This document shows, in pieces, positions 10,310-32,102 of a DNA stretch of 34,045 bases (position 1 is its first letter; the number at the start of each line of letters is the position of its first letter). Source of the DNA: an uncultured Pelagibacteraceae bacterium (GTDB lineage: Bacteria > Pseudomonadota > Alphaproteobacteria > Pelagibacterales > Pelagibacteraceae); contig CACIUF010000008.1 in NCBI GenBank assembly GCA_902589765.1, forward strand, positions 1 to 34,045. Reading direction: 5' to 3'. Position numbers and translations under genes: made by a program. Below the pieces are notes generated by a model. That model made no database searches, had not been told where the DNA came from, and saw nothing but the letters and a program-made list of their open reading frames with translations.

Positions 10310-10626
10310 ATACCTTTATCATCAAATAATTTTTTTAATTCTCCGCTCTCATACATTTCTTTAATGATATCACATCCACCTATAAACTCTTTTTTAATAT
10401 AAAGTTGCGGGATAGTTGGCCAATCACTAAATACTTTAATTCCATCTCTTAAAGATTGATCTTCTAATACATTTACACCCTTAAAATTTATTTCTAATAT
10501 TTTAAGTATATTTATAACAGCCATTGAAAAACCGCATTGTGGTTGATCTGGAGTACCCTTCATAAAAAGGCACACATCATTAGTATCAATATGGTTTTGA
10601 ATTAAACTTTTTGTTTGATCATCCAT
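10294..10626 (-). CDS. grxD: Monothiol glutaredoxin, Grx4/GrxD type
   Basis: This 110-residue protein carries the monothiol active site CGFS (31-34) after MKGTPDQPQ, followed by the glutathione- and cluster-binding segments WPTIPQLYIKKEFIGGCDI. CGFS glutaredoxins bind a [2Fe-2S] cluster with glutathione and pass it to target proteins or form hybrid clusters with BolA proteins. Here bolA lies directly upstream: its TAA shares one base with this ATG (TAATG), a coupled pair that supports complex formation. It is the last gene of the purine run, so it may depend on promoters upstream. Confidence 0.97.
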   Translation of the reverse strand: MDDQTKSLIQNHIDTNDVCLFMKGTPDQPQCGFSMAVINILKILEINFKGVNVLEDQSLRDGIKVFSDWPTIPQLYIKKEFIGGCDIIKEMYESGELKKLFDDKGINYKK

Positions 10627-10856
10627 TATTGTTCCTTAGTTTTAATTGCTAAAGCATGTAACTCATTTCCCATCTTACCTTTTAATGAATCATAAACCAT
10701 TTTATGTTGTTCAATTTTGCTTTTTCCTGCAAATTGAGAAGAGGTTATAGTTGCTGAATAATGATTACCATCTCCAGCTAAATCTTGAATATCTATTACA
10801 GCGTCTGGCATCGCTTCTTTAATATGTTTTTCTATTTCTTTTAAATCCATTGCCAT
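10626..10856 (-). CDS. bolA: BolA-family protein
   Basis: The 76-residue protein has the BolA fold signature: GDGNHYSATITSSQFAGKSKIEQHKMVYDSLK, containing the conserved invariant HKMVY-type helix and a His (H33 region) available for cluster binding, then a short tail with ELHALAIKT. BolA-like proteins partner CGFS glutaredoxins in Fe-S trafficking and iron sensing; the next gene is exactly such a glutaredoxin. Two in-frame ATGs (residues 1 and 3) are close together. It follows purL after two bases. Whether it also regulates transcription, as proposed for E. coli BolA, cannot be seen. Confidence 0.94.
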   Translation of the reverse strand: MAMDLKEIEKHIKEAMPDAVIDIQDLAGDGNHYSATITSSQFAGKSKIEQHKMVYDSLKGKMGNELHALAIKTKEQ

Positions 10857-10858
10857 TT

Positions 10859-13048
10859 TTAACTCATATATTTAGTTAGCCAACTTGTATAATAAGACTT
10901 TAATTCGTCAATTGTAAGTTTTGTCTTTTCATTAATTATTATATCGTTTTTCGTGATAATACCAAATTCCTCATAATACACAGAATTTTTATCTAAAATT
11001 TTTGCAACTTCTTTTAAATCTTCTTTATTTATCTCTATTAAATACCTTCCTTGATCCTCTGAAAAAAAATATTCAATTTCATTCATTAAATTCTTTGACT
11101 TATTAATCTTAATTCCCTTATCACCTTTAATGCACATTTTGCTTATCGCAACTAATAAACCTCCTAAAGAAATATCATGAGCACTTTTCACAAATCCTTT
11201 ACCAATTAAATTTAATATTGTTTCCCCATTATTTTTTTCATTAAAAAGATTTACCTCTGGTGGTGGACCATTTTTTTCATCTAAAATTGTTCTAGTAAAT
11301 AAACTTTGGTCAATATGACCTTCAGTTTTACCAATGATTAAAACTAAATTATCAACTTCTTTTAAATCCATTGAAATCATTTTTTTGTAATCTTTAATTA
11401 AACCCACACCACCAATTGAAGGAGTTGGTTTGATCCCAACTTCTTTAGTTTGGTTGTAAAAAGATACATTGCCAGATACCACAGGGAAGTTTAAATATTT
11501 ACTTGCCTCTCCAATCCCCTGAACACATTCAACAAACTCACCCATGTTGTCTTCTTTTTCGGGACTTCCAAAATTTAAACAATTCGTAATAGCGATTGGA
11601 GTCGCTCCAACTGAAATTAAATTCCTCCAACTTTCAGCGACAACCTGTTTACCTCCTGTTAATGGGTGGGCCCAACAATAAACTGCTGAGGAGTCTACTG
11701 ATGCTGCTACAGCTTTATTAGTTCCATGTACTCTTACCACACCAGAGTCTCCACCTGGTTTTTGAATAGTGTCACCCATTACAGTATGATCATATTGTTG
11801 CCAGATCCATTCTTTACTACAGATATTTTGATTAGATAAAATCTTCTTTAGTACATCCTTAATCTTTAATTTATTTAAAACTTCATTTTTAATTTTATTT
11901 TTTTTGGGTAACTTTGATTTTTTCCATTTACGATCGTACATTGGAGAATTTTCAACAAGAATATTAACAGGTATTTTTGCTACTTGTTCTTGATTGAAAA
12001 ATAATTCGATGTTTTTTGAGTTTGTTGTTTTTCCAATGACCGCAAAGTCTAAATTCCATTTATCAAATATTTTTTTTGCAATATCTTCCTTGCCATTTTC
12101 TAAAACTATTAACATTCGTTCTTGGCTTTCAGACAACATAATTTCGTATGGAGTCATTTTAGTCTCTCTGCATGGGACTTTATTTAAATCAATTTCAATG
12201 CCTAAATTTCCTTTTGATGCCATTTCAATACTCGAAGAAGTAAGACCAGCAGCCCCCATGTCTTGAATGGCAATAATTGAGTCACCAGCCATTAATTCTA
12301 AACATGCCTCTAGTAAAAGTTTTTCTGTAAAAGGATCACCAACTTGCACAGTTGGTTTTTTTTCCTCAATTTTTTCATCAAAACTAGCTGAAGCCATACT
12401 TGCACCATGAATTCCATCTCTACCAGTCTTAGAACCCACATAAATTACAGGTTTATTTAAACCTGCAGCCTTAGAGTAAAAAATTTTATTTTTTTTAACT
12501 AGACCAAGTGTCATTGCATTAACTAAAATATTTCCATTGTAAGAACTATCAAAAGAAGTTTGTCCAGCGATAGTTGGCACACCCATACAATTTCCGTATC
12601 CACCAATACCATGCACAACTCCCCGTAAAAGATTTTTTGTTTTTTTATGTTGTGGTGATCCAAAATGTATCGAATTTAAATTGGCTATCGGTCTTGCTCC
12701 CATCGTAAATACATCTCTCATTATCCCTCCCACACCAGTTGCAGCCCCTTGATAGGGTTCTATAAATGAAGGATGATTATGGCTTTCAATTTTAAAAACA
12801 ATCGCATCTCCATCTTCGATATCAATAACACCTGCATTTTCTCCTGGACCTTGAATCACTTTTTTTCCTTTGGTTGGAAGTTTTTTAAGGTGAAGTCTTG
12901 ATGACTTATATGAACAATGTTCATTCCACATTGCAGAAAAAATTCCAAGTTCAGTAATATTTGGAGTTCTTTTAAGTAATTGACAAATTTTTTTATACTC
13001 ATCAGACTTAAGACCATGATCTATAGCAATTTGTTCATTAACTTCCAT
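10859..13048 (-). CDS. purL: Phosphoribosylformylglycinamidine synthase, large subunit PurL
   Basis: This 729-aa protein is the small-type PurL that works with separate PurS and PurQ subunits rather than the 1300-aa fused enzyme. It makes FGAM from FGAR, ATP and the ammonia delivered by PurQ. AIRS/GARS-type motifs include [80 protein letters not shown] and, in the second half, [19 protein letters not shown] and AHDISLGGL. Its ATG shares one base with the purQ stop. All three subunits are adjacent (purS-purQ-purL), in the usual alphaproteobacterial order. Confidence 0.98.
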
Positions 13049-21675: not shown

Positions 21676-23145
21676 ATGGAATTAAGTAAAAAAAAAGAGA
21701 TCATCTTATATATTATACTTAGCTTTTTTTTTGCAATAACAGTTCAGCAATTTCCACTTTTTAAAGGTAACTCGTTGCATCTGCTTCATGCCATAAAAGA
21801 TTTTGAGTTTAATAAGTTGCAAAATGACTGGATAGCTAATCAAACTAATCATTTACCATTTTTTACTATGTTTAATCATTATTTGATTAAATTTTTTTCA
21901 CTTAAAATATTATATTTTGTTCATTTTATATTATTATTATTATGTTCCTTTTTTTTATTTTTAATTTGTAAAACTCATTTCAAAAAACTTTCAAATGTTT
22001 ATTTATCTATAATTTGGTTTGCGCTATTTTTAATCATTTATCACGAAAATAGTTTGTTTGGTGGTGTTGCGGGTCAAGATATTATCAATGAGGGTTATCA
22101 ACCTGCAAGTTTTGGTGTACTTTTTTTTATTGGTATTTATTTTTTCCTTAAAAAAAAAAATTTATTTGCAGTTTTTTTTATTTGTTTAGCGGCAACTTTT
22201 CACCCCACTTATACACTTCATTCAGGATTTTTGATAAGTGGAATTTTAATTTATCTTATTTTTAGAAAAGAATTTAAAGAATTTTTTAAAGTCTTAATCT
22301 TTTATATCATTTTAATTTTACCAATAACGATCTATGTAATTTATAATTTCTTACTCATAGAAAGTGATATACTTTTAGAGGGTCAAAAAATTTTATTAAA
22401 TAGAATTCCTCATCATGCAAATATAAATCATTGGTTTTCTAATAAAGATCTATTATCTGTTATTACTTATTCAATTTCGTTGCTTATTGTCTATAAAAAC
22501 AAGCGTATATTTTTACCAATATTTATTTTTGGTTTTGTTGCAATTTTTTTATCTGTTGTTGATTATTTTATTTCAAATAATACACTATCACTTGCATTTC
22601 CATGGAGAAGCTCAGTTATTTTAATCCCACTATCAACAACTATTATTTTATCTTTCTTATTATCAAAAATTTCATTAGAAAATAAAACTCTCAAATTAGT
22701 AAGTATTGTTCTTTTTGTTTTATCTTGTTTTTTCTTTTTTATTAAAAATCATTATATTAAAAATTTAAATAAAGATTTTAATAAAAATTTAGAGTTGGTA
22801 AAAAAAATCAATAAAAATTATGACTCTATAGAGAGAATTTTGATTCCTGATAATTTGACATATATAAGAATGAATACTGGTTTACCAATATTTATTGACT
22901 GGAAACACCATGCTTTTAGATATGATGAAATTATTCATTGGAAAGAAAGATTAGATCTTACAAGAAGTTTTTATAAATCCAAAGATTTTGATGATAAAAA
23001 ATTAATTTTAGAGAACATTAATAAAATTGAAAAAGTCACGCATATTCTTTTTTATAAAAAAAATTTTCCTCTAAATTGTGAAAATTTGATTGATGATAAA
23101 AACTTTATATTTGTTAAGAAAAATAGCTGTTTTGGGATCAATTAA
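21676..23145 (+). CDS. Polytopic membrane protein of unknown function, possibly glycan-related
   Basis: No family is recognised with certainty. The first 370 residues contain about ten hydrophobic stretches (for example 9-25, 78-97, 108-122, 139-156, 161-180, 185-197, 207-226, 277-305, 320-335, 345-360). A soluble C-terminal domain of about 125 residues follows with VKKINKNYDSIERILIPDNL, IRMNTGLPIFIDWKHHAFRY and IIHWKERLDL. This arrangement of many membrane spans plus a C-terminal loop referring to charged/aromatic motifs is seen in GT-C-like or uncharacterised membrane proteins of surface-glycan clusters. It starts 27 bases after the C-methyltransferase on the same strand, so co-transcription is likely. 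Its end converges on the phosphorylase gene. Confidence 0.7.
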   Translation: MELSKKKEIILYIILSFFFAITVQQFPLFKGNSLHLLHAIKDFEFNKLQNDWIANQTNHLPFFTMFNHYLIKFFSLKILYFVHFILLLLCSFFLFLICKTHFKKLSNVYLSIIWFALFLIIYHENSLFGGVAGQDIINEGYQPASFGVLFFIGIYFFLKKKNLFAVFFICLAATFHPTYTLHSGFLISGILIYLIFRKEFKEFFKVLIFYIILILPITIYVIYNFLLIESDILLEGQKILLNRIPHHANINHWFSNKDLLSVITYSISLLIVYKNKRIFLPIFIFGFVAIFLSVVDYFISNNTLSLAFPWRSSVILIPLSTTIILSFLLSKISLENKTLKLVSIVLFVLSCFFFFIKNHYIKNLNKDFNKNLELVKKINKNYDSIERILIPDNLTYIRMNTGLPIFIDWKHHAFRYDEIIHWKERLDLTRSFYKSKDFDDKKLILENINKIEKVTHILFYKKNFPLNCENLIDDKNFIFVKKNSCFGIN

Positions 23146-23169: not shown

Positions 23170-24894
23170 CTATATATTAGATATCCACAGAGTTTCAAAA
23201 GGTTTTAAAAATACAAATTGGTTATTTTTAATTTGTATTTTTGAACCCATTAAATTTCTAATTTTTTGATTGTTTCTTTTAATTTTTATTTTTTGGGCCA
23301 CTGAACTTAAATTTGTAACACACATTATTGTTTGTTTTTTATCTCTACTTATCCTTTTAAATCCAAATACTTTTGATCCAAAATTCATATTTATTCTTTT
23401 TGCATTTGGGTGGAAAGCTTTTTGCTTTCTTCTAATGTTGAGTAAATAACAAATATTTTGATAAAAAATACTTTCTTTAGTTTTATTATTTTTTAGTTTA
23501 TTAATGATATTCTTAAAATTCCATCTATATCTGTTTACGTCTCTATTGTTACCAGTGATAACAAACTTAGTTTCATCATTAGAAGTACCAAAAATAGAAT
23601 TAAAATATATAGCTGGTATTCCTTCAAAAGAAATCATTATAGCATGAGCTGAGATATATCTTTCTAAATAAAATTCACCTTTTTGATCATAATCTGATTT
23701 TTTTAAAGCATCAAAAACTGTGATATTTGCCTCATATACCTTTTTAACTTTATTTTGAACTTTTCTGTAAGAAAATTTTGAGCCATTTTTTTTTAGTCTC
23801 TTTAGAAAATTATTTAATGTTTTTTCATTTAACAATCCCTCTGTTGGTCTCATTCCTATTCCATCATGTGAAGCAATAAAATTTAAATAACAATTTTCAT
23901 TTTTTGTATTTGGAAGATTTTTACTCCACTTATTTAGATATGAACTATTTTCAAATAAAAAAGCATGAATTAATAATGGTGGTAAGGAAAAATTATATAT
24001 CCAATTAGCCTCGTCATTTTTACCAAAATAACTCAAATTTTCTTTTTCAGGTAAATTTGTCTCGGTAATGATCGTAGTTTGTACATTTAGCAGATTAATT
24101 ATATTTCTTAAAAGTTTAATAATTTCATGAGTTTGTTTTAAATTAATACACTTACTTCTATTTTCTTTCCAAAGGTATGCAATAGCGTCTAATCTAAAAA
24201 TAGTAACACCATTATTAATGAGATGAATCATTATTTTGATGAATTGAATTAATACAGATGGATTTCTAAAATTTAAATCAATTTGATCTGGGCTAAATGT
24301 TCGCCAAAGATAATCAGATTTTTTAAAAATTTTTATTTTTTTTAGTAATTTATGATCTCTTGGTCTAACCACTTTAGAAGTGTTAAATTTATTGTTGACT
24401 GTTAAAAAATAATCTTTTCCAGGATTCTTTTTTTTTAAAAAATTTTTAAACCACAAACCTCTTGCTGATGAATGATTAATAACCATATCGGCCATGACAT
24501 CACTTGATTTTGAAACATTCTTTATATCTAACCAATTACCAAGTTTATTCTCAACTTTATAATGATCTTTTACAGCAAAGCCACTATCACTGCTTGAGGG
24601 ATAGAATGGTAAAAAATGAATAGTATTAAAATAATTTTTTAATTTTTTCTTAAAGAAGCCTTGAAATACTCTAATCGATTTCTTTTTCTCAGAATATACA
24701 CTATCACCATAACAGATAACTAAAGTAGTTTTTTCAGAGATATTTTTCTTCTTTTTTGGATTTTTTTTATTAAAATTTTTGATTGTTTGAACAATTTCAT
24801 TCTCAAAGTAATCAATATCTTTTTTAGATAAGATTATTTTGTAAATATTATCTAGTCTAGATCTTATAATTCTCTGATCTTTTTGAGTTAACAT
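23170..24894 (-). CDS. GH13 subfamily 18 phosphorylase, probably glucosylglycerate phosphorylase
   Basis: The four GH13 regions are present: DVMADMVINH (H141), TIFRLDAIAYLWKE (nucleophile D236), TIITETNLPE (acid/base E278) and FIASHDGIGMRP (transition-state D344). ASHDGIG(M/L)RPxEG and the later GIPAIYFNSIFG and NNRDVNRYRW mark subfamily 18, whose members are phosphorylases (sucrose, sucrose-6'-P, glucosylglycerol, glucosylglycerate), not hydrolases. The product is alpha-glucose-1-P. The adjacent gpgS and phosphatase make glucosylglycerate the best guess; sucrose or glucosylglycerol remain possible. It is cytoplasmic, with no signal peptide, 574 aa. Its ATG shares one base with the gpgS stop. 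It is the last gene of the minus-strand operon. Confidence 0.85.
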   Translation of the reverse strand: MLTQKDQRIIRSRLDNIYKIILSKKDIDYFENEIVQTIKNFNKKNPKKKKNISEKTTLVICYGDSVYSEKKKSIRVFQGFFKKKLKNYFNTIHFLPFYPSSSDSGFAVKDHYKVENKLGNWLDIKNVSKSSDVMADMVINHSSARGLWFKNFLKKKNPGKDYFLTVNNKFNTSKVVRPRDHKLLKKIKIFKKSDYLWRTFSPDQIDLNFRNPSVLIQFIKIMIHLINNGVTIFRLDAIAYLWKENRSKCINLKQTHEIIKLLRNIINLLNVQTTIITETNLPEKENLSYFGKNDEANWIYNFSLPPLLIHAFLFENSSYLNKWSKNLPNTKNENCYLNFIASHDGIGMRPTEGLLNEKTLNNFLKRLKKNGSKFSYRKVQNKVKKVYEANITVFDALKKSDYDQKGEFYLERYISAHAIMISFEGIPAIYFNSIFGTSNDETKFVITGNNRDVNRYRWNFKNIINKLKNNKTKESIFYQNICYLLNIRRKQKAFHPNAKRINMNFGSKVFGFKRISRDKKQTIMCVTNLSSVAQKIKIKRNNQKIRNLMGSKIQIKNNQFVFLKPFETLWISNI

Positions 24895-26114
24895 TAATAA
24901 TATTTTTTATTATCATCATTAACTACTTTTTCAAGTCTTCCAAGAAAATCTGGTATAGCGCTTTTTACTCTGCTCCATGTGGGTATAAAAGGGGTATCCA
25001 TCGGATTAAGAATAAAAGCCTCTCCAGCTTTCATTATGTTTATTGCAAATAATTCGACTGCTTTTTCCTCAGTGTGAGAATCAAATTTTAAGCCATTCAT
25101 AACTGCATCATTTCTATATATATCAATTAAATCTAAGGCAGATCTATAATAAGTTGCTTTTAATGATCTGAACTTTTCCCTACTAAAAGTATTACCTTGA
25201 GTTGCTAATTTTTTGATAAATGTTTTGATAATATCAATAGACATTCTTGATAGTCCTTTTGTTTCATCATCAATTGATAGCACCTGATGTTTGTGATCAT
25301 AAGTATCCGCTAAATCTACTTGACATATATTTTGTGGTGAAAAACTTCTTTGCATTTCAGATAAAATTCCAACTTCTATTCCCCAGTCTGAAGAAATTCT
25401 CAATTCAGGTAAAACATTTCGTCTAAATGAAAACTCACCTGCTAAAGGATATTTAAATGATTTCATAAAGTCTAAATAATCACTTTTACCAATAGTTTTT
25501 TCTAAAGCTGTCAATAGTGGAAAAACTAATAATCTTGCCACTCTTCCATTCATTTTTTCATTTGCTACTCTTGGATAATAACCTTTGCAAAATTCAAAAT
25601 TGAAAAGGGGATTTACTACTGGATAAAATAACTTTGCAAGCATTCTTCTATCATAAGTTTTAATATCACAATCATGTAAAGCAACGGATCTTGCACTATC
25701 TCTTGCTATACACATGCCTATACAATACCAAACATTCCTACCTTTACCGAGCTCACTTGGTGCAAGATTGTTTTTTTTTAATTCTCGATCAAGTTTTTTC
25801 AAACTAGGACCATCATTCCATAGAATTGAAAAAGGTGATTTTAATTTCTTAAAAAATTTCCAAGCTTTTTTTGCTTGTGCTTCATTTGCTTGGTCTAATC
25901 CAATTATTATGTGATCTAAATATTTTGTTTTACTTATTTCTTCAACTATTTTTGGTAAAGCCGTTCCTTCTAATTCAGAATAAAGACATGGTAAAATTAA
26001 TTCCATTTTTCTTTGTTTTGAAAATTTTGATAGTTCACTTTCAATGACCTCTGTGGACTTTGTTTTAAAGTCGTGCAGAGTTGAGACCACTCCATTTTGA
26101 GAAAAATCACTCAT
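24894..26114 (-). CDS. gpgS: Glucosyl-3-phosphoglycerate synthase (GT81)
   Basis: It should transfer glucose from a nucleotide sugar to 3-phosphoglycerate, the committed step to glucosylglycerate. The GT-A core shows LILPCLYSELEG (40-50), HIIIGLDQANEAQ, GKGRNVWYCIGM and the metal-binding DxD as HDCDIK (D148, D150), followed by GYYPRV and FKYPLAGEFSFRR and SSDWGIEVG, all segments of GpgS-type rather than archaeal mannosyl-3-phosphoglycerate synthases (GT55). Length 406 aa. It lies 15 bases after a gene for a matching phosphatase and overlaps the phosphorylase gene. The donor (UDP- or GDP-glucose) cannot be read directly; a mannosyl product is the main alternative. Confidence 0.86.
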   Translation of the reverse strand: MSDFSQNGVVSTLHDFKTKSTEVIESELSKFSKQRKMELILPCLYSELEGTALPKIVEEISKTKYLDHIIIGLDQANEAQAKKAWKFFKKLKSPFSILWNDGPSLKKLDRELKKNNLAPSELGKGRNVWYCIGMCIARDSARSVALHDCDIKTYDRRMLAKLFYPVVNPLFNFEFCKGYYPRVANEKMNGRVARLLVFPLLTALEKTIGKSDYLDFMKSFKYPLAGEFSFRRNVLPELRISSDWGIEVGILSEMQRSFSPQNICQVDLADTYDHKHQVLSIDDETKGLSRMSIDIIKTFIKKLATQGNTFSREKFRSLKATYYRSALDLIDIYRNDAVMNGLKFDSHTEEKAVELFAINIMKAGEAFILNPMDTPFIPTWSRVKSAIPDFLGRLEKVVNDDNKKYY

Positions 26115-26129
26115 GGCGAGTTTTTAATC

Positions 26130-26930
26130 TCAAAAGTCTAATTTAACTAGTGCCGTTTTAATCACATCAGCCCAGCCCTCAGGTGATGGCTTGTTCGAAA
26201 CTATTAGATTATCTATGTTTATTTGATCCTGTTTAAATTGATCATTAAAGACTAAACATGGAATATCACAATTTCTTAACATATCTAAGTCATTGAAATT
26301 ATCTCCTACAGCTATGACCTTTATTTTACTTTCTACCTTTTTGTAAATTTTAAGAACTTGATTCATTGATTTAACTTTATCTGTATTATCACCTAAGTTT
26401 AAAACACGACCTCCTTCTTGCATACTTAATGAGGAAGACTTTAAAATATTTAGTAATCTAATTTTTTCTTTTTTGTCACCTTCAAATAAAAAGGGAATTG
26501 TATATTTCCGATTTAAAGCATTTTTTAAATTATTTTCTTGAAGACCCAAAATATTGATTTGTTCTTTTGAATTCATTTTTGAAATAAATTTACACTTAGC
26601 TTTAAGATTTTCAGGAATTTTAGAATTAAAAATTTCAATTAATTCCTGTTTATCTCTGCTCAAAACTATTTTGTTTGGAAAGTTGCTATTAATTAAATTC
26701 AGTCCATGAATTGAAGATCCATTTTCAGATATATAAGGAAGATCTAAGCCAAGTTCTGATATAAATTCCTCTATCTCTTTTTCAGTTTTACTAGTATTTG
26801 GAATAATAATAATCCCCTCATCAATAAGACTTTTTATATAATCTTTTATCTCATCAAATTTAAAATTATCTCTATGTAACAATGAACCATCTAAATCAGT
26901 AAATATAATTATTGAAAATTTTTTACTCAA
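26130..26930 (-). CDS. gpgP: Sugar-3-phosphoglycerate phosphatase of the MpgP/GpgP family (HAD-IIB)
   Basis: HAD motif I is FTDLDGSLLH with nucleophile D12 and D14; motif II is IIPNTSKTEKEIEEF; motif IV is VIAVGDNFNDLDML. YISENGSSIHG is the MPGP-family segment (usually FENGAAI). The family removes phosphate from mannosyl- or glucosyl-3-phosphoglycerate to give the free glycosylglycerate osmolyte; some members accept both. Encoded six bases after the ABC ATPase and directly before gpgS, it completes a two-step synthesis path, so glucosyl-3-phosphoglycerate is the inferred substrate. 266 aa, no signal peptide. Confidence 0.85.
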   Translation of the reverse strand: MSKKFSIIIFTDLDGSLLHRDNFKFDEIKDYIKSLIDEGIIIIPNTSKTEKEIEEFISELGLDLPYISENGSSIHGLNLINSNFPNKIVLSRDKQELIEIFNSKIPENLKAKCKFISKMNSKEQINILGLQENNLKNALNRKYTIPFLFEGDKKEKIRLLNILKSSSLSMQEGGRVLNLGDNTDKVKSMNQVLKIYKKVESKIKVIAVGDNFNDLDMLRNCDIPCLVFNDQFKQDQINIDNLIVSNKPSPEGWADVIKTALVKLDF

Positions 26931-26936
26931 AGAAAT

Positions 26937-27989
26937 CTATCTTATCCTGTTTTTATTTTTGTCAAAAAATAAAATTTTGTCTTTAGAAAATGATATTTTA
27001 AGTGGCTGATTGTTTATATCTTCTGACGATTTAATAATAATTTGGGTTTCTGATAATTTAGCGTGAATAATTTTTTCGAAGCCTAAATTTTCAATTAGAT
27101 CCACTTTGACGTTTAGTTTAATTTCACGATCATCTTTAATGCTGATATCTTCAGGCCTAATACCTAAATAAATCTCATCTTTAAAATCAAAATTTTCAAA
27201 AGTAATTTTATTTTTAAACAATTCAATGGTGTTTGAATTGATTATTTGTTCTTTATTAATTTTGACAATATTCATTTTTGGGGAACCAATAAATTCTGCA
27301 ACAAAAATATTATTGGGATCAGTGTAAATTTCATTTGGTGTTCCAAATTGTTCGATAATTCCTTTATTTAGCACTACAATTCTATCAGCTAATGTCATTG
27401 CCTCTATTTGATCGTGTGTTACATAAATAATATTTGTTTTTAATTTTTTGTGTAACTTAGAAATTTCAACTCTCATTTCAGATCTTAAAGCTGCATCTAG
27501 ATTTGACAATGGCTCATCAAATAAGAATACTTTAGGATTTCTTGTAATAGCTCTTCCGATTGCAACTCTTTGCCTTTGTCCACCTGAAAGTTGTTTGGGT
27601 TTTCTCTCTAATAGATCTTCAATTTGAAGCGTAGCAGCTGCGTGATTAACTTTTTTTTTAATTTCATTTTTTGAAATTTTTTCCATTTTCAAACCAAATG
27701 ACATATTTTCAAAAACATTCATGTGTGGATATAAAGCGTAAGATTGAAAGACCATTGCAATTTCACGCTTAGAAGGAATTAAATTATTAATTAGCTTTGT
27801 ATCTAAAAAAATTTCTCCTTGATCGATACTTTCTAGTCCAGAGACCATTCTTAATAAAGTTGATTTTCCACAACCTGAAGGACCTACTAAAACTATGAAT
27901 TCCCCATTCTTTATGTCTATGTTAAAATTGTTGATAACTTTATTTTCGCCAAAAGATTTTTCGAGATTTTTTATAACAATTTTTGACAT
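26937..27989 (-). CDS. ABC transporter ATPase, MalK/UgpC type (carbohydrate uptake)
   Basis: The nucleotide-binding domain has Walker [10 protein letters not shown] (36-44), Q82 in [11 protein letters not shown], signature LSGGQ (134-138), Walker B VFLFDE (154-159) and the switch His in YVTHDQIEA. Residues 240-350 form a TOBE/MalK-type regulatory domain with [10 protein letters not shown]. At 350 aa it is typical of the CUT1 family energising two-permease sugar importers. It is not next to the permeases; it faces them across the 140-base control region and leads the operon holding the phosphatase, gpgS and phosphorylase genes. So the importer and the solute enzymes are linked in expression. 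No Shine-Dalgarno is seen before the ATG. Confidence 0.95.
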
Positions 27990-28006
27990 TTATTTGATTT
28001 AAAGGG

Positions 28007-28034
28007 ATTTTAACTAACCATTAAATGTTGTTAA
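28007..28034 (-). promoter_or_regulatory. Promoter for the minus-strand ATPase-gpgP-gpgS-phosphorylase operon
   Basis: On the minus strand TTAACA (28034 to 28029, five of six consensus bases) and TAAAAT (28012 to 28007, five of six) are 16 bases apart. Transcription would start near 28000, giving a leader of about 11 bases before the ATG at 27989. Confidence 0.5.
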
Positions 28035-28036
28035 AA
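28008..28036. promoter_or_regulatory. Inverted repeat, candidate operator in the divergent control region
   Basis: The arms are TTTTAACTAAC (28008-28018) and GTTGTTAAAA (28027-28036). They are complementary over ten bases except for one extra T in the left arm, around an eight-base centre. The repeat covers the minus-strand -10 and both -35 boxes, where a bound repressor would block both operons. No regulator gene is encoded nearby in the window. Confidence 0.4.
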
Positions 28037-28056
28037 ATTTATTACACTGCTAGATT
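28028..28056 (+). promoter_or_regulatory. Promoter for the binding protein-permease operon
   Basis: TTGTTA (28028-28033) and TAGATT (28051-28056), each four of six consensus bases, are 17 bases apart. Transcription would start near 28062-28064. The -35 box lies on nearly the same bases as the minus-strand -35 box, so the two promoters would be back to back and probably exclusive or jointly controlled. Confidence 0.42.
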
Positions 28057-28063
28057 TATCGCA

Positions 28064-28117
28064 ATGAAAAAATCGCGAACATCAGAGAAAACTAAATACC
28101 AGAGAGAAACAATATAA
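28064..28117 (+). CDS. Possible 17-codon leader ORF before the binding-protein gene
   Basis: ATG at 28064 opens MKKSRTSEKTKYQRETI, ending in TAA at 28115-28117, directly before the Shine-Dalgarno of the next gene. It has no upstream ribosome binding site, but the predicted transcription start falls on or next to its ATG, so it could be read from a leaderless mRNA. The peptide is basic and matches nothing I know. Chance is a fair alternative. Confidence 0.25.
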   Translation: MKKSRTSEKTKYQRETI

Positions 28118-28125
28118 GAGGGGGA
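28117..28125 (+). promoter_or_regulatory. Strong Shine-Dalgarno for the sugar-binding protein
   Basis: AGAGGGGGA ends four bases before the ATG at 28130. It is the most purine-rich site in the window and contrasts with the missing or weak sites of most genes here, consistent with high expression of the binding protein. Confidence 0.7.
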
Positions 28126-28129
28126 ATGC

Positions 28130-29458
28130 ATGATTAGAAAAATCATAATTAATATATTTGCTCTAGTATTTCTAATTACTAATACTAGTTTTGCGGATAT
28201 TAAATTTTGGACAACGGAGGTCCAACCTGCAAGAATGGCAAAACAAGAGGAGATGGCTAAAGCGTTTGAAGCTAAAACTGGCATCAAAGTTGAAGTCATA
28301 CCAATTGAAGAAAAAGATCTTGGCACAAGAGCTACTGCAGCAGCAGCAGCAGGAGATCTTCCAGATGTGATTTATCACACTCTTCAATATGTTTTACCAT
28401 GGGCTGAGGCAGGCATATTAGATGTTGATGCAAATAACGCTGTAGTTAAGTCGTTAGGTAAGAAAACATTTGCACCGGGCGCATTAAATATGGCTAAGAA
28501 GGGTGGAAAAATTGCAGCTGTACCAGTTGATGGCTGGACACAAATGGTCGTTTATAGAAAAGATCTATTTGCTGCAGCTGGCTTAGAGCCACCAACTTCA
28601 TATGCAAACATTGTTAAAGCAGTTAATGCATTATCAAGCAATGACATGTTTGGCTTTGTAGCTGCCACAAAAACAGATGAAAACTTTATGAGCCAAGTAC
28701 TTGAACATGTACTTTTAGCTAATGGAGTTAATTTTGTTAAAAAAGGTGGAACTAAAAAGCAAGGGAAAGCTTTAAAGAATTCTTTAGAATTTTATAAAGT
28801 AATTGCGAAAGCAAGCCCTCCAGGAGAATTATTCTGGAAACAATCAAGAGCTTTATACTTTGCTGGAAAAACACCAATGATTATTTGGTCACCATTTATT
28901 ATGGATGAGTTAGCAGGTTTAAGAGATTCTGCTCCGCCAACAATTAATAGTGATCCGACATCACCAGAGTTAGCTTCTAAAACTGGTTTCATTACTAATT
29001 TTAGTGGACCTAACAATAAAAAAGGTGCTGCTTGGGCTGATGTAAGATACTTTGGTATTACTGCGGATGCAGATACAGATGAAGCTAAAAAATTCATCGA
29101 GTACTCTATGAGTGAAGGTTATACAGCTACATTAGGAATTGCTCCGGAAGGAAAATTCCCAGTAAGAAGAGGAAACAAAAGTGATCCTAGTGCTTACACT
29201 AAAGCTTGGAGTAAATTACCAGTAGGTGTTGATAGAAAAGCTCCTTTAACAGATCTTTATTCTGCAGATGTTATTGATAACATCGTTGCAGGTTTAGATA
29301 CTGCAAACAGATGGGGTGTCAAAGAGGGTGAACTATCTCGGGCATCAAAAATCATCAATTCTCAATTCTTAAATAGAATCACTAGAGAATATATTGATGA
29401 TCAAATCTCAGTTGATGAAGCGGTTAAGAAAATTAACGCTGAATTAGCTAAGTTTTAA
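28130..29458 (+). CDS. Periplasmic sugar-binding protein of a CUT1-type ABC transporter
   Basis: A 442-aa solute-binding protein of the SBP_bac_1 family. Residues 1-22 form a signal peptide (MIRKIIINIFALVFLITNTS then FA), with cleavage after SFA before DIKFW. There is no lipobox Cys. Family segments include GIKVEVIPIEEKDLGTRA, an Ala run, then GDLPDVIYHTLQYVLPWAEA, GGKIAAVPVDGWTQMVVYRK and MIIWSPFI. Codon use is visibly richer in GC than in neighbours, as expected for an abundant protein. With two permeases downstream and the ATPase opposite it completes an importer. The ligand is likely a glucoside such as glucosylglycerate or glucosylglycerol, inferred from the adjacent enzymes; glucose or other sugars are possible. 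Confidence 0.93.
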   Translation: MIRKIIINIFALVFLITNTSFADIKFWTTEVQPARMAKQEEMAKAFEAKTGIKVEVIPIEEKDLGTRATAAAAAGDLPDVIYHTLQYVLPWAEAGILDVDANNAVVKSLGKKTFAPGALNMAKKGGKIAAVPVDGWTQMVVYRKDLFAAAGLEPPTSYANIVKAVNALSSNDMFGFVAATKTDENFMSQVLEHVLLANGVNFVKKGGTKKQGKALKNSLEFYKVIAKASPPGELFWKQSRALYFAGKTPMIIWSPFIMDELAGLRDSAPPTINSDPTSPELASKTGFITNFSGPNNKKGAAWADVRYFGITADADTDEAKKFIEYSMSEGYTATLGIAPEGKFPVRRGNKSDPSAYTKAWSKLPVGVDRKAPLTDLYSADVIDNIVAGLDTANRWGVKEGELSRASKIINSQFLNRITREYIDDQISVDEAVKKINAELAKF

Positions 29459-29475
29459 ATAATAAATTTATAAAG

Positions 29476-29504
29476 AGCGGATAATATTTTATTATCCGCT
29501 TTTT
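29476..29504 (+). terminator. Intra-operon hairpin after the binding-protein gene
   Basis: AGCGGATAAT (29476-29485) and ATTATCCGCT (29491-29500) form a perfect 10-bp stem with a five-base loop, followed by TTTT. The permease ATG at 29508 starts eight bases after the stem. It can act as a leaky terminator and 3' mRNA stabiliser, giving more binding protein than permease, as in malE-malF. Confidence 0.85.
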
Positions 29505-29507
29505 ATT

Positions 29508-30767
29508 ATGAGTGATTCATTATCAAAATTAGAAAAAAGAACTGCTTACACTTTAGTTTTACCTGCAGTCCTATTAGTTTTTGCCATCGTATTATTTCCT
29601 ATATTTGCCAATGTTTGGATTAGTTTCAAAGACATTGAATTAAAAGATATTAGAATTCCAGAACCTCGAGCAAAGAAAATTGTTAAATCAATTTCAGAAA
29701 ATCAATCAGAATTAAAAATTGTTTATAAATTACGAAACAGTTCTTTAATTCAAGAAATAAGAAATGTTCAGTTTCAAGATAAATTTCCAACAAATGTTTC
29801 ACCAGTCAATCTTGATTCTAGATGTAATTTTCAATCTAAAAAAGTTGTTTGTGATTTTGGAAATTGGGAGGCAAAATACAGGGAAAATTTTGAGATAACT
29901 ATACAGAATATCAATGGTGAAATAATTGACAAAAAAATAATTAAATCTCAAAAACCAATTCTTAGTGGGAAAGCAGATAACCCGTTACTCACTACGAATT
30001 TTACTTTAGAAAATTTTAAAAAAGTTTTTTATGAAAATAACTTTGTTGAATTACTTTTAACAACATTTTACTTCACTTTTTTTGGCACAATTGGGGCAAT
30101 TATCTTTGGAATTTTAGCAGCACAATTAGTTAATCAAAATATTCAAGGTCGAACTTATATGCGAGGTATTTTACTTTTTCCATATGTAGGTCCTGTAGTT
30201 GCTTTAGCTTACACTTGGACACTATTGTTGGATCCAAATAGCGGAACTTTAAACGCATTATTGGTTAATTTTAACATCATAGAGCAACCAATAAATTTAT
30301 TAGGTCAAAAATACATAACCATGAGTATTTTAGGATTTGAATTTAAATTAAGGTTGGCTTTAACTACAGTCATCTTTTTTGAAATTTGGCGCTATTTTCC
30401 ACTCGCTTTTTTATTTATTTTAGCAAGATTGCAGGCAATACCACAAAGTTTGTATGAAGCAGCGGAGGTGGATGGAGCAAGTCCTATTCAAAAATTTATC
30501 CATATTACACTGCCTCAAATTACAGCGATTATCTCAATTTTATTTATGATTAGGTTTATTTGGAACTTTAATAAATTTGAGGATATCTTTTTATTAACCG
30601 GTGGCGCTTCAGGCACAAGAACTTTACCTATTAATGTTTATCAACAAGGGTTTGCTGTATCAGATATTGGAATGGGCTCTGCTGTTTCGATAGTCATTGT
30701 GATGTTACTTCTTAGTTTCATGGTTATTTATTTTAGATTAATTGGAAAGAGGGCTAATGAAGTTTAA
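29508..30767 (+). CDS. MalF-type ABC permease with large periplasmic Ig-like insert
   Basis: A CUT1 permease with TM1 at about 14-38 (TLVLPAVLLVFAIVLFPIFA), then five or so further segments from residue 178 on, and the EAA loop that contacts the ATPase as EAAEVDGASPIQKFIHITLP. Between TM1 and TM2 (about 45-165) lies an unusually long periplasmic insert. Residues 68-135 resemble a DUF11-type Ig-like beta domain: IVYKLRN, NVQFQDKFPTNVSPVNL, C106 and C115 able to pair, DFGNWEA and NFEITIQ. E. coli MalF also has a large Ig-like P2 loop that touches its binding protein, but at another position. Length 419 against a usual 290-310. No Shine-Dalgarno; a hairpin ends eight bases before the ATG. Confidence 0.93.
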   Translation: MSDSLSKLEKRTAYTLVLPAVLLVFAIVLFPIFANVWISFKDIELKDIRIPEPRAKKIVKSISENQSELKIVYKLRNSSLIQEIRNVQFQDKFPTNVSPVNLDSRCNFQSKKVVCDFGNWEAKYRENFEITIQNINGEIIDKKIIKSQKPILSGKADNPLLTTNFTLENFKKVFYENNFVELLLTTFYFTFFGTIGAIIFGILAAQLVNQNIQGRTYMRGILLFPYVGPVVALAYTWTLLLDPNSGTLNALLVNFNIIEQPINLLGQKYITMSILGFEFKLRLALTTVIFFEIWRYFPLAFLFILARLQAIPQSLYEAAEVDGASPIQKFIHITLPQITAIISILFMIRFIWNFNKFEDIFLLTGGASGTRTLPINVYQQGFAVSDIGMGSAVSIVIVMLLLSFMVIYFRLIGKRANEV

Positions 30768-31950
30768 GTCTCTTACAATATTTTTAATCATTTCATCTTT
30801 TTTTCTGACATGTATTTTGTCAATTTGGAAAATCATGTCGACATTACAGGGTCTAAACTTTACTAATTTAAACATCACACCTGTATTCTTAATTGGTATT
30901 TTATTATCTTTAGCATTTGTCTTAATCGGCAATAAAATTAATCACTTAATTAAGATTTTTTCATTATCATTTATATTTTCAATTTCATATTTTTATTTGA
31001 ATGAGGCATCTCCATATTGGTATATATTTGGAGTTTTCTTAATTACTTTATTTTTTACGAACAAACTCAAAAAATACAATATGCAATCTTTACAGGAAGA
31101 TTTTATATCAGAAAAAATTATTTTCGATTTTATCACTTTATTTGGCATTGTTTTTTTTGCATTTGTAATTTTATTTCCATTTTATATTATGTTTGTTACC
31201 AGTTTTAAAACTCAGATCGCTTTATTAGTTAATCCTTTAGACTTTAGTCTAGATTTTACAAAAAGCTTAACTGAGTTATTTAAATCTTATTTTGTTATCT
31301 TTGAAACTTATAATTTTGGTAGGTATATCTTAATAAGCTCAGCAGTTTCTATCGGAACTGTTATTGTCACATTATTATTTGCAATCCCTGCAGCTTATGC
31401 TGTTGCTAGATTAAACTTTTTCGGCAAAAACTTTTTATCAACTTCGATCTTAATTATTTATATGTTTCCAGCTATAGTATTAGTCATCCCTTTATACACT
31501 GTGTTTAGTCAACTTGGATTAAGAAACTCAATCTTTGGTCTATTGATTGTTTATACGGCCACAACCTTGCCGGTTGCTATTTATATGTTGCAAGGTTATT
31601 TCAAAAGTATTCCAAAAGAAATTGAAGATGCTGGCATTATGGATGGTCAAAATTGGTTTGGTATAATTTTAAAGATTATTATTCCTTTAAGTTTACCAGC
31701 TATTGCATCCGTTGCTCTTTATGTCTTTATGATTGCTTGGAATGAATTCCTATTCTCATTGATGTTTTTAGATAGTCCTAAGTCCTTTACTTTATCACGA
31801 GCCATTCAATATCTAAGTGGGGACGCTGAAACACCACGCCAATATTTAATGGCTGGCTCAGTAATAGTCACTTTACCAGTTCTATTCATATTTATTTATT
31901 TTGAAAAATATCTTGTCAGTGGCTTGACCGCTGGTAGCGTAAAAGAATAA
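30757..31950 (+). CDS. MalG-type ABC permease with four extra N-terminal membrane segments
   Basis: The C-terminal 280 residues are a normal MalG-type permease: FVILFPFYIMFVTSFKTQ, IPAAYAVARLNFFGK, MFPAIVLVIPLY, the EAA loop EIEDAGIMDGQNWFGIILKI, and AWNEFLFSLMFL. The first 110 residues add about four hydrophobic segments (roughly 6-25, 42-58, 64-81, 86-101) that standard 275-300-aa MalG proteins lack. I chose ATG 30757, preceded by GGAAAGAGGG; a TTG at 30742 is in frame. It overlaps the upstream permease by 11 bases, so translation is coupled. Together with the upstream permease it forms the channel of the importer. Confidence 0.93.
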   Translation: MKFKSLTIFLIISSFFLTCILSIWKIMSTLQGLNFTNLNITPVFLIGILLSLAFVLIGNKINHLIKIFSLSFIFSISYFYLNEASPYWYIFGVFLITLFFTNKLKKYNMQSLQEDFISEKIIFDFITLFGIVFFAFVILFPFYIMFVTSFKTQIALLVNPLDFSLDFTKSLTELFKSYFVIFETYNFGRYILISSAVSIGTVIVTLLFAIPAAYAVARLNFFGKNFLSTSILIIYMFPAIVLVIPLYTVFSQLGLRNSIFGLLIVYTATTLPVAIYMLQGYFKSIPKEIEDAGIMDGQNWFGIILKIIIPLSLPAIASVALYVFMIAWNEFLFSLMFLDSPKSFTLSRAIQYLSGDAETPRQYLMAGSVIVTLPVLFIFIYFEKYLVSGLTAGSVKE

Positions 31951-32016: not shown

Positions 32017-32102
32017 GCCCTCGTGGTGAAATTGGTAGACACAAAGGACTTAAAATCCTTGCCGCTTGCGGAGTGCCAGTTCGAGTCTGGCCGAGGGCAC
32101 CA
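32017..32102 (+). tRNA. tRNA-Leu (anticodon UAA)
   Basis: The 86-base gene folds as a class II tRNA. Acceptor GCCCTCG (32017-32023) pairs with CGAGGGC (32092-32098). The anticodon stem AAGGA/TCCTT encloses loop CTTAAAA, with TAA at 32051-32053. A long variable arm (about CCGCTTGCGG) marks Leu/Ser/Tyr tRNAs, and the T arm is GCCAG, TTCGAGT, CTGGC. Discriminator A and an encoded CCA end it. It reads UUA and UUG, major Leu codons in this AT-rich DNA. Confidence 0.97.

What the first reader, a model, noticed from the sequence alone, without database searches (positions are those of the whole stretch)
23170..31950. Uptake, synthesis and phosphorolysis of a glucosylglycerate-type solute around one control region
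Seen: an importer (binding protein, two permeases, ATPase), a GpgS-type synthase, an MpgP/GpgP-type phosphatase and a GH13_18 phosphorylase, with the ATPase sharing an operon with the three enzymes. Known: GpgS plus GpgP makes glucosylglycerate, and GH13_18 includes glucosylglycerate phosphorylases releasing glucose-1-P and glycerate. Inference: the cell can make, take up and recycle one osmolyte, saving part of the bond energy as glucose-1-P. Nitrogen-free glucosylglycerate could replace glutamate under nitrogen limitation in ocean water. Having maker and breaker in one tight operon implies metabolite-level control or use as a reserve. Joint encoding with a dedicated importer in such a reduced genome is striking.
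Basis: partly seen in the sequence, partly recalled or inferred. Interest (0 to 1): 0.85.

Follow-up and report, generated by a model that had tools for sequence, protein, structure and literature searches.

The report
SAR11 glucosylglycerate make-import-split gene cluster
A very common ocean bacterium carries, side by side, genes that appear to make, take in and split one nitrogen-free salt-protection sugar, and its relatives keep the importer while swapping one unrelated splitting enzyme for another, which points to what the importer carries.

Summary
The seven genes are real and tightly packed. The window is from Pelagibacterales (SAR11) by its close relatives. The GH13 protein is a glucosylglycerate (GGA) phosphorylase by sequence: 37% identical to characterised E. 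coli YcjM, with both published signatures ((T/S)ETN, loop-A Glu) in 89 of 89 distinct SAR11 copies. Its neighbours are a GpgS-like synthase, an MPGP-family phosphatase and a CUT1-type importer.

New evidence from relatives: in 247 Pelagibacterales genomes, 87 of 91 with this importer also encode a GGA-splitting enzyme: this phosphorylase (28) or an unrelated GH63 glucosylglycerate/mannosylglycerate-type hydrolase (59). No genome has both (0 of 247). The two replace each other in place beside near-identical importers. That is the best evidence that the importer carries GGA.

All genes are adjacent in 15 of 247 genomes only. Maker and breaker in one operon is known elsewhere. The nitrogen role, ligand and activities are untested. 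GGA synthesis in offshore SAR11 was reported in 2025. I found no report of the importer link or the enzyme swap, but a key paper could not be read.

The parts
23170..24894 (-). GH13_18-type glucosylglycerate phosphorylase (GGaP), 574 aa; Asp236 (FRLDA), TETN 277-280 with Glu278, Asp344 (SHDG), loop-A Glu388; the catalytic roles of Asp236, Glu278 and Asp344 are recalled GH13 knowledge
   Evidence: BLASTP 385 bits, 37% over 528 to YcjM; the named columns are invariant in 89 of 89 distinct SAR11 copies, except the first T of TETN (88 T, 1 S); best PDB hit a sucrose phosphorylase, 156 phmmer bits
24894..26114 (-). GpgS-like glucosyl-3-phosphoglycerate synthase, 406 aa
   Evidence: NF040724 GpgS_Meth 357.6 bits, E 8e-107, below its cut-off of 700; in 75 of 247 order genomes
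26130..26930 (-). HAD-IIB phosphatase of the mannosyl-3-phosphoglycerate phosphatase subfamily (GpgP/MpgP type), 266 aa
   Evidence: TIGR01486 167.1 bits, cut-off 164.75
26937..27989 (-). ABC importer ATPase, UgpC/MalK type, 350 aa
   Evidence: NF008653 476.7 bits, cut-off 432
27990..28129 (.). divergent intergenic control region
   Evidence: layout; core in 27 of 28 loci of this layout
28028..28056 (+). promoter-like element TTGTTA-N17-TAGATT with TG before the second hexamer, towards the binding protein
   Evidence: sequence pattern only, not listed by the consensus scan
28130..29458 (+). periplasmic solute-binding protein (SBP_bac_1), 442 aa; predicted glucosylglycerate binder
   Evidence: PF01547; orthologues in 91 of 247 genomes, 87 with a GGA-splitting enzyme; 25% identical to YcjN, the binding protein next to YcjM
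29508..30767 (+). ABC importer permease 1, 419 aa
   Evidence: PF00528, UgpA-like
30742..31950 (+). ABC importer permease 2, 402 aa
   Evidence: PF00528, MalG-like

Best explanation
The cluster serves one solute, 2-O-glucosylglycerate (GGA). GpgS joins a nucleotide-activated glucose to 3-phosphoglycerate, GpgP removes the phosphate, and GGA accumulates as an anionic, nitrogen-free solute. The ABC importer brings GGA in from seawater (or recovers leaked GGA). GGaP cleaves GGA with phosphate to glucose-1-phosphate and glycerate; Glc1P can go straight back to nucleotide sugars or through phosphoglucomutase. Across SAR11 the splitting step is interchangeable: genomes carry either this phosphorylase or an unrelated GH63 hydrolase that should release free glucose, not both. 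Shown: gene content, order, signatures, co-occurrence, exclusion and in-place replacement. Inferred: every activity, the ligand, directions of flux and physiological role.
For: GGaP signatures in 89 of 89 distinct copies and 37% identity to YcjM (the E. coli enzyme is named as a characterised GGaP in PMC7178133). GH63 partner: NF047898 glucosylglycerate hydrolase E 2e-85, closest solved structure T. thermophilus mannosylglycerate hydrolase 310 bits, 13 of 13 checked substrate or catalytic residues invariant in 59 of 59 distinct sequences. Importer with a splitter 87 of 91, against 35 of 156 genomes without importer (p 3e-32); GpgS with a splitter 73 of 75 (p 8e-27); GGaP and hydrolase together 0 of 247 where independence gives about 15 (p 2e-9). 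In-place swaps: L115 (GGaP) against L102 and L107 (hydrolase), same neighbours on both sides; L081 (GpgP-GpgS-hydrolase) against L012 (GpgP-GpgS-GGaP), same downstream genes but for one extra. At least 5 splitter changes on the importer tree, 3 of them forced by well-supported branches. PGM/PMM and PGI-like proteins in 10 of 10 genomes.
Against: No activity or binding was measured. GpgS and the hydrolase score below their NCBIfam equivalog cut-offs (357.6 against 700; 287.1 against 550). GH63 enzymes of this type also split mannosylglycerate. A GGA phosphorylase that also uses sucrose is known (XpGP, PMC11009771), so strictness is not certain. Fisher tests treat related genomes as independent. 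Two glycerate kinase families were missing in 10 of 10 genomes. The binding protein is only 25% identical to YcjN, whose ligand I did not find stated. 4 of 91 importer genomes show no splitter (G177, G181, G217, G241; 88-90% complete drafts).
Confidence: 0.75

Rival explanations
1. The importer has another or broader main ligand (mannosylglycerate, glucosylglycerol, other small alpha-glucosides), and GGA is one of several cargoes.
For: GH63 GgH/MgH enzymes act on mannosylglycerate too; the closest solved structure to the SAR11 hydrolase is a mannosylglycerate hydrolase; the binding protein has no close characterised relative among solved structures.
Against: Where GGaP sits in the hydrolase slot (L115, L153, L159), the substrate common to both enzyme types is GGA, since most characterised GGaPs are strict (PMC7178133; PMC11009771).
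Confidence: 0.15
2. The system mainly recaptures the cell's own leaked osmolyte and adjusts its pool; it is not a feeding route.
For: In the window maker, breaker and importer ATPase share one apparent operon; GGaP genomes usually also have GpgS (50 of 56).
Against: 43 genomes have importer plus splitter and no GpgS (40 hydrolase, 3 GGaP), and 30 have GpgS without importer: import does not follow synthesis strictly. Drafts are incomplete, so some absences are false.
Confidence: 0.3
3. The importer carries glycerol-3-phosphate or a related glycerophospho compound, as its ATPase and first permease names (UgpC, UgpA) would suggest.
For: UgpC-type ATPase over cut-off and UgpA-like permease; a glycerol-3-phosphate dehydrogenase-like gene lies beyond the ATPase in one group of loci (L101, L102, L107, L115).
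Against: UgpC-type ATPases serve many sugars (recalled); the binding protein's NCBIfam hits are MalE and another carbohydrate model, not UgpB; in 81 of 91 genomes the importer adjoins a GGA-splitting enzyme.
Confidence: 0.04
4. The GH13 is a sucrose phosphorylase and the importer a sucrose or glucose importer; the synthase is an unrelated neighbour.
For: Best NCBIfam hit is sucrose phosphorylase TIGR03852 (163.4 bits).
Against: That hit is below its cut-off of 334.4; loop A has Glu where sucrose phosphorylases have the Gln of N(L/V)D(I/L/V)YQ, and (T/S)ETN is present, in 89 of 89; the GH63 enzyme swapped in its place is not a sucrose enzyme by family.
Confidence: 0.04
5. The genes merely share a variable island next to tRNA-Leu and are not functionally linked.
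For: A tRNA-Leu starts 66 bases after permease 2 and flanking genes vary between genomes.
Against: Importer, splitter and synthase stay linked in several different neighbourhoods and layouts, and GpgP-GpgS-GGaP recurs in other alphaproteobacterial families.
Confidence: 0.03

Closest known systems
GpgS/GpgP gene neighbourhoods with glucosylglycerate phosphorylase (EC 2.4.1.352)
   Same: GGaP genes often accompanied by GpgS, GpgP or glycerate kinase; same phosphorylase signatures (PMC7178133 passages)
   Different: Here an importer ATPase opens the operon, and in sister genomes the phosphorylase is replaced in place by a GH63 hydrolase
E. coli ycjM-ycjNOP cluster
   Same: GGaP (YcjM) beside a binding protein and two permeases
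   Different: No GpgS/GpgP in the stretch shown; carries kojibiose phosphorylase and glucoside dehydrogenases; binding proteins only 25% identical
Picocyanobacterial GGA operon (Prochlorococcus NATL2A; Synechococcus WH8102 SYNW2434-2436)
   Same: GGA synthesis and recycling genes together, with an adjacent putative transporter in Prochlorococcus (PMC11631117 passages); GpgS, GpgP and a gene between them in WH8102 (PMC2874817 passages)
   Different: Sequence relationship and transporter type were not compared here
GH63 glucosylglycerate/mannosylglycerate hydrolase (M. hassiacum GgH, T. thermophilus MgH)
   Same: The SAR11 partner enzyme keeps all 13 checked active-site residues
   Different: In SAR11 it sits beside an importer; 310 phmmer bits to the Thermus enzyme, about 166-174 to mycobacterial entries
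Offshore SAR11 GGA synthesis reported in PMC12636525 (2025)
   Same: GGA synthesis genes noted as specific to offshore genera, with the nitrogen-limitation idea (section 14)
   Different: Main text has 0 occurrences of 'phosphorylase', 'ABC transporter' and 'glucose'; supplements were not readable

Membership tests
[quoted passage not shown]
   Window TETN 277-280; 89 of 89 distinct SAR11 copies (88 TETN, 1 SETN) (motif from PMC7178133)
Glucosylglycerate phosphorylase (GGaP, GH13_18) | Glu instead of Gln in loop A | tested here: met
   Glu388, invariant in 89 of 89 and in YcjM; register against a sucrose phosphorylase
Glucosylglycerate phosphorylase (GGaP, GH13_18) | Closer to characterised GGaP than to other GH13_18 enzymes | tested here: inconclusive
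   385 BLASTP bits to YcjM against 156 phmmer bits to the best solved sucrose phosphorylase; different programs, and no tree with all specificities was built
Glucosylglycerate phosphorylase (GGaP, GH13_18) | Reversible phosphorolysis of GGA, none of sucrose | not testable with these tools
   needs enzyme assay
Sucrose phosphorylase | Loop-A N(L/V)D(I/L/V)YQ motif; TIGR03852 cut-off | tested here: not met
   Loop A reads VYEAN with Glu at the Gln position; 163.4 bits against 334.4
GpgS (glucosyl-3-phosphoglycerate synthase) | NCBIfam NF040724 cut-off | tested here: not met
   357.6 bits against 700, full-length match; hence called GpgS-like
GpgP/MpgP phosphatase subfamily | TIGR01486 cut-off | tested here: met
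   167.1 against 164.75
CUT1-type sugar ABC importer | SBP_bac_1 binding protein, two BPD_transp_1 permeases, UgpC/MalK-type ATPase (definition recalled) | tested here: met
CUT1-type sugar ABC importer | Glucosylglycerate as ligand | not testable with these tools
GH63 glucosylglycerate hydrolase (partner enzyme in sister genomes) | Conserved substrate and catalytic residues listed in PMC6608630 | tested here: met
   13 residues invariant in 59 of 59 distinct sequences, placed by the alignment
GH63 glucosylglycerate hydrolase (partner enzyme in sister genomes) | NCBIfam NF047898 cut-off | tested here: not met
   287.1 against 550; hence called GgH/MgH-type

The most novel reading that the evidence does not exclude
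SAR11 is divided into glucosylglycerate makers and glucosylglycerate eaters. Makers (GpgS, usually with the phosphorylase) keep glucose as Glc1P for their own turnover; eaters (importer plus GH63 hydrolase, no synthase) live partly on GGA released by Prochlorococcus and by maker SAR11. The type of splitting enzyme marks the role, and one importer family in 91 of 247 genomes feeds both, making an N-free osmolyte a shared currency of the surface ocean.
Probability: 0.3. Interest if true: 0.75.

Novelty: new variant of a known kind. Interest (0 to 1): 0.56.

Why it matters
Prochlorococcus and SAR11 dominate open-ocean plankton, and GGA is one of two major compatible solutes of Prochlorococcus NATL2A (PMC11631117 passages). 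A predicted GGA importer in 91 of 247 SAR11 genomes (after dropping four weak cases) names a concrete molecule that could pass between them and a binding protein to test. The repeated swap of two unrelated enzymes at one place gives a substrate assignment for an importer that sequence similarity alone could not.

Tried and rejected
Rejected: sucrose phosphorylase reading (motif and cut-off). Rejected: 'importer dedicated to the synthase operon'; all three searched genes are adjacent in 15 of 247 genomes.

A prediction that turned out untestable: I expected KDPG aldolase (PF01081) to mark genomes with the hydrolase; it was found in 0 of 247, so it says nothing. Against my expectation, glycerate kinase families PF13660 and PF02595 were found in 0 of 10 genomes each. 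A P-loop kinase beside the triad in L220 (relative in L222, 70%) and a DUF4147/MOFRL glycerate kinase beside GGaP in L227 had no homologue in the SAR11 stretches I held, which are only parts of genomes.

No relative of GpgS confirmed in viral contigs in a scan for close relatives. Rfam found only a tRNA in the window. The consensus promoter scan was at chance level (54 found, 51.4 expected). The conserved promoter-like core (up to 3 mismatches, 300 bases upstream) was before the importer in 14 of 23 loci with GGaP, 0 of 58 with the hydrolase and 1 of 10 with neither in the stretch, so it is not a general site of this importer.

Rows dropped before counts: four genomes with only weak partial binding-protein matches (G122, G135, G183, G228; 95 to 91) and one weak hydrolase match (G214; 67 to 66). 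Kept and counted once: G194 GGaP in two contigs, G103 binding protein and G179 hydrolase in two pieces, G170 hydrolase with internal stops. 'Adjacent' means same contig within 8 kb; in 6 importer genomes the splitter is on another contig, which may be contig breaks. The importer tree used 85 of 91 rows (all three proteins at over 80% coverage), two of them without a splitter label.

Papers: passages found by word search were seen of PMC6775983, PMC12636525 (also its whole section 14), PMC3686209, PMC7178133, PMC6720575, PMC11009771, PMC11631117, PMC6608630, PMC8938411 and PMC2874817; in PMC8443644 and PMC10654061 the only passage was in the reference list. The 2024 study of SAR11 binding proteins (doi 10.1038/s41586-024-07924-w, known to me by recall) and Franceus 2017 (PMC5601347) were not held; I read neither. 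That the importer link and the enzyme swap are not in print rests on searches of an open-access library, of which only the top rows were seen in the larger ones (for example 20 of 1,106 and 8 of 1,763).
Full report
What is there. Seven ORFs lie at 23170-31950 as described. Four on the minus strand (ATPase, GpgP, GpgS, GGaP) are spaced by 6 bases, 15 bases and a 1-base overlap; three on the plus strand (binding protein, two permeases) by 49 bases and a 26-base overlap. The source is Pelagibacterales by its relatives: its GpgS matches Pelagibacteraceae records at up to 99%. The genome is a 954-kb draft, 78% complete.

The phosphorylase. Against NCBIfam the GH13 resembles sucrose phosphorylase, at half the required score. 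E. coli YcjM, annotated as GGA phosphorylase in K-12, is 37% identical over 528 residues; the review PMC7178133 lists the E. coli enzyme among strict GGA phosphorylases (passages). The review names two diagnostic features, (T/S)ETN and a loop-A Glu. Both are present in 89 of 89 distinct SAR11 sequences (88 TETN, 1 SETN), and the residues I take from GH13 knowledge as catalytic are invariant. One known GGA phosphorylase also uses sucrose (PMC11009771), so the signature does not prove strictness.

The arrangement is a mosaic. Of 80 fetched GpgS loci, 27 hold all seven genes in this layout and 44 only GpgP-GpgS-GGaP (some are cut by contig ends). Searching one fixed set of 247 genomes of the order gave GGaP in 56, GpgS in 75 and the binding protein in 95, of which I kept 91. 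All three are adjacent in 15 genomes; 43 have the importer with neither GGaP nor GpgS. That looked at first like evidence against a GGA importer.

The hidden partner. I mapped 20 genome stretches and 11 fetched loci. Among those with a complete second permease and no GGaP in the stretch, 13 of 15 have a protein of about 420 residues directly after that permease; the other two are L106 and L118, and the genome of L118 has GGaP elsewhere. The protein is a GH63 glucosylglycerate/mannosylglycerate-type hydrolase: NF047898 E 2e-85 (287 bits, cut-off 550), PF22422 261 bits, T. thermophilus mannosylglycerate hydrolase 310 bits, mycobacterial hydrolase entries about 166-174 bits. Thirteen residues reported for substrate binding or catalysis in the mycobacterial enzyme (PMC6608630, passages) are invariant in 59 of 59 distinct sequences. 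It occurs in 66 of the same 247 genomes (one weak match dropped).

Association and exclusion. GGaP and the hydrolase never occur together (0 of 247; p 2e-9). Of 91 importer genomes, 58 have the hydrolase adjacent, 23 GGaP adjacent, 6 one of them on another contig, 4 neither. So 87 of 91 importer genomes have a splitter against 35 of 156 others (p 3e-32), and 73 of 75 GpgS genomes have one (p 8e-27). These p-values ignore relatedness. On a tree of the importer (85 rows, quick method, no bootstrap) the splitter changes at least 5 times, 3 of them forced by well-supported branches. The clearest case is in place: L115 has GGaP exactly where L102 and L107 have the hydrolase, with the same genes on both sides; L081 has the hydrolase after GpgP-GpgS where L012 has GGaP, with the same downstream genes but for one extra. 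Two enzymes of different family share one substrate, GGA, so I infer that the importer beside them carries GGA. The hydrolase type also accepts mannosylglycerate, which leaves room for a second cargo. Most neighbours of the importer were not annotated; of those scanned in L101, L103 and L112 (seven proteins) none was another sugar-splitting enzyme, but one is glycerol-3-phosphate dehydrogenase-like.

A division of labour, weaker. GGaP goes with GpgS (50 of 56) more than the hydrolase does (23 of 66; p 4e-10); the hydrolase goes with the importer (59 of 66 against 28 of 56; p 2e-6). This suggests phosphorylase for home-made GGA and hydrolase for imported GGA, but clade effects could make the same pattern. 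GpgS without importer: 30 genomes; importer and splitter without GpgS: 43; GpgS and importer: 45. A guessed link to glucose catabolism could not be tested.

History of the phosphorylase. On a quick tree the SAR11 GGaPs form one supported group apart from nine other alphaproteobacterial sequences and YcjM, and the three GGaPs in the hydrolase slot form their own branch; long branches make deep placements unsure. Context (with or without importer, with or without GpgS) changes at least 24 times, a count that contig ends inflate.

Products. Phosphoglucomutase-family, PGI-like and nucleotidyltransferase proteins are in 10 of 10 genomes checked. Two glycerate kinase families are absent in all 10. 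In other Alphaproteobacteria GpgP-GpgS-GGaP recurs in the same order (L220, L222, L223, L224, L225, L226) or with GGaP on the other strand (L227, L228, L229); L221, L230 and L231 showed no GpgS in the stretch. A P-loop kinase (L220) or a glycerate kinase (L227) lies beside some of them. How SAR11 uses glycerate is open.

Control region. A promoter-like element with an extended second hexamer lies at 28028-28056; its core is in 27 of 28 loci of the same layout, in 14 of 23 GGaP loci and in 0 of 58 hydrolase loci of the order-wide set. It marks this lineage; none of the seven genes is a regulator.

Relation to what is known. GGaP near GpgS/GpgP is described (PMC7178133). Prochlorococcus has a GGA operon with an adjacent putative transporter (PMC11631117, passages). 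GGA synthesis as an offshore SAR11 trait, with the nitrogen argument, is in PMC12636525 (section 14); its main text has no occurrence of 'phosphorylase' or 'ABC transporter', supplements unread. What I did not find in the held library is the importer, its link to GGA and the swap of the two splitting enzymes. The 2024 survey of SAR11 binding proteins could not be read and may already hold a ligand for a relative of this protein.

Verdict. A new variant of a known kind: a GGA make-import-split system in SAR11 with an interchangeable splitting module. Confidence 0.75 for GGA as the common solute; all functions await assay.

Noticed in passing
window 29508-30767 and 30742-31950: Both permeases are long (419 and 402 aa, about the same in the mapped relatives) against 293 and 280 aa for YcjO and YcjP; the Pfam transport domain starts only at residues 197 and 214. 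The extra N-terminal part is unexplained.
   Followed up: no
window 32017-32102: A tRNA-Leu (TAA) lies just after the importer; flanking genes vary between genomes, as in a variable island.
   Followed up: partly
L080, L112 (and L079, where no ATPase was called): Another layout: GpgP, GpgS, importer and GH63 hydrolase all on one strand, i.e. the system in its hydrolase version.
   Followed up: partly
L220 12290-13144, L222 5597-6451, L228 about 10558-11112: A P-loop kinase of the phosphoribulokinase/uridine kinase family beside or near GpgP-GpgS-GGaP in other Alphaproteobacteria: a candidate glycerate kinase.
   Followed up: partly
L221 8964-18004: GGaP beside another importer together with GH1 and GH4 glycosidases and no synthase in the stretch.
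   Followed up: no
G170 C19 4972-6199: Hydrolase gene with internal stops next to an importer, possibly decaying or a draft error.
   Followed up: no
window 21676-23145: Membrane protein with a weak DUF6798 match directly downstream of GGaP on the opposite strand; found at over 40% identity in 4 of 80 loci.
   Followed up: no
GpgS is far more conserved (79-99% in full-length order-wide matches) than GGaP (59-99%); GpgP is 54-94% in the loci.
   Followed up: no
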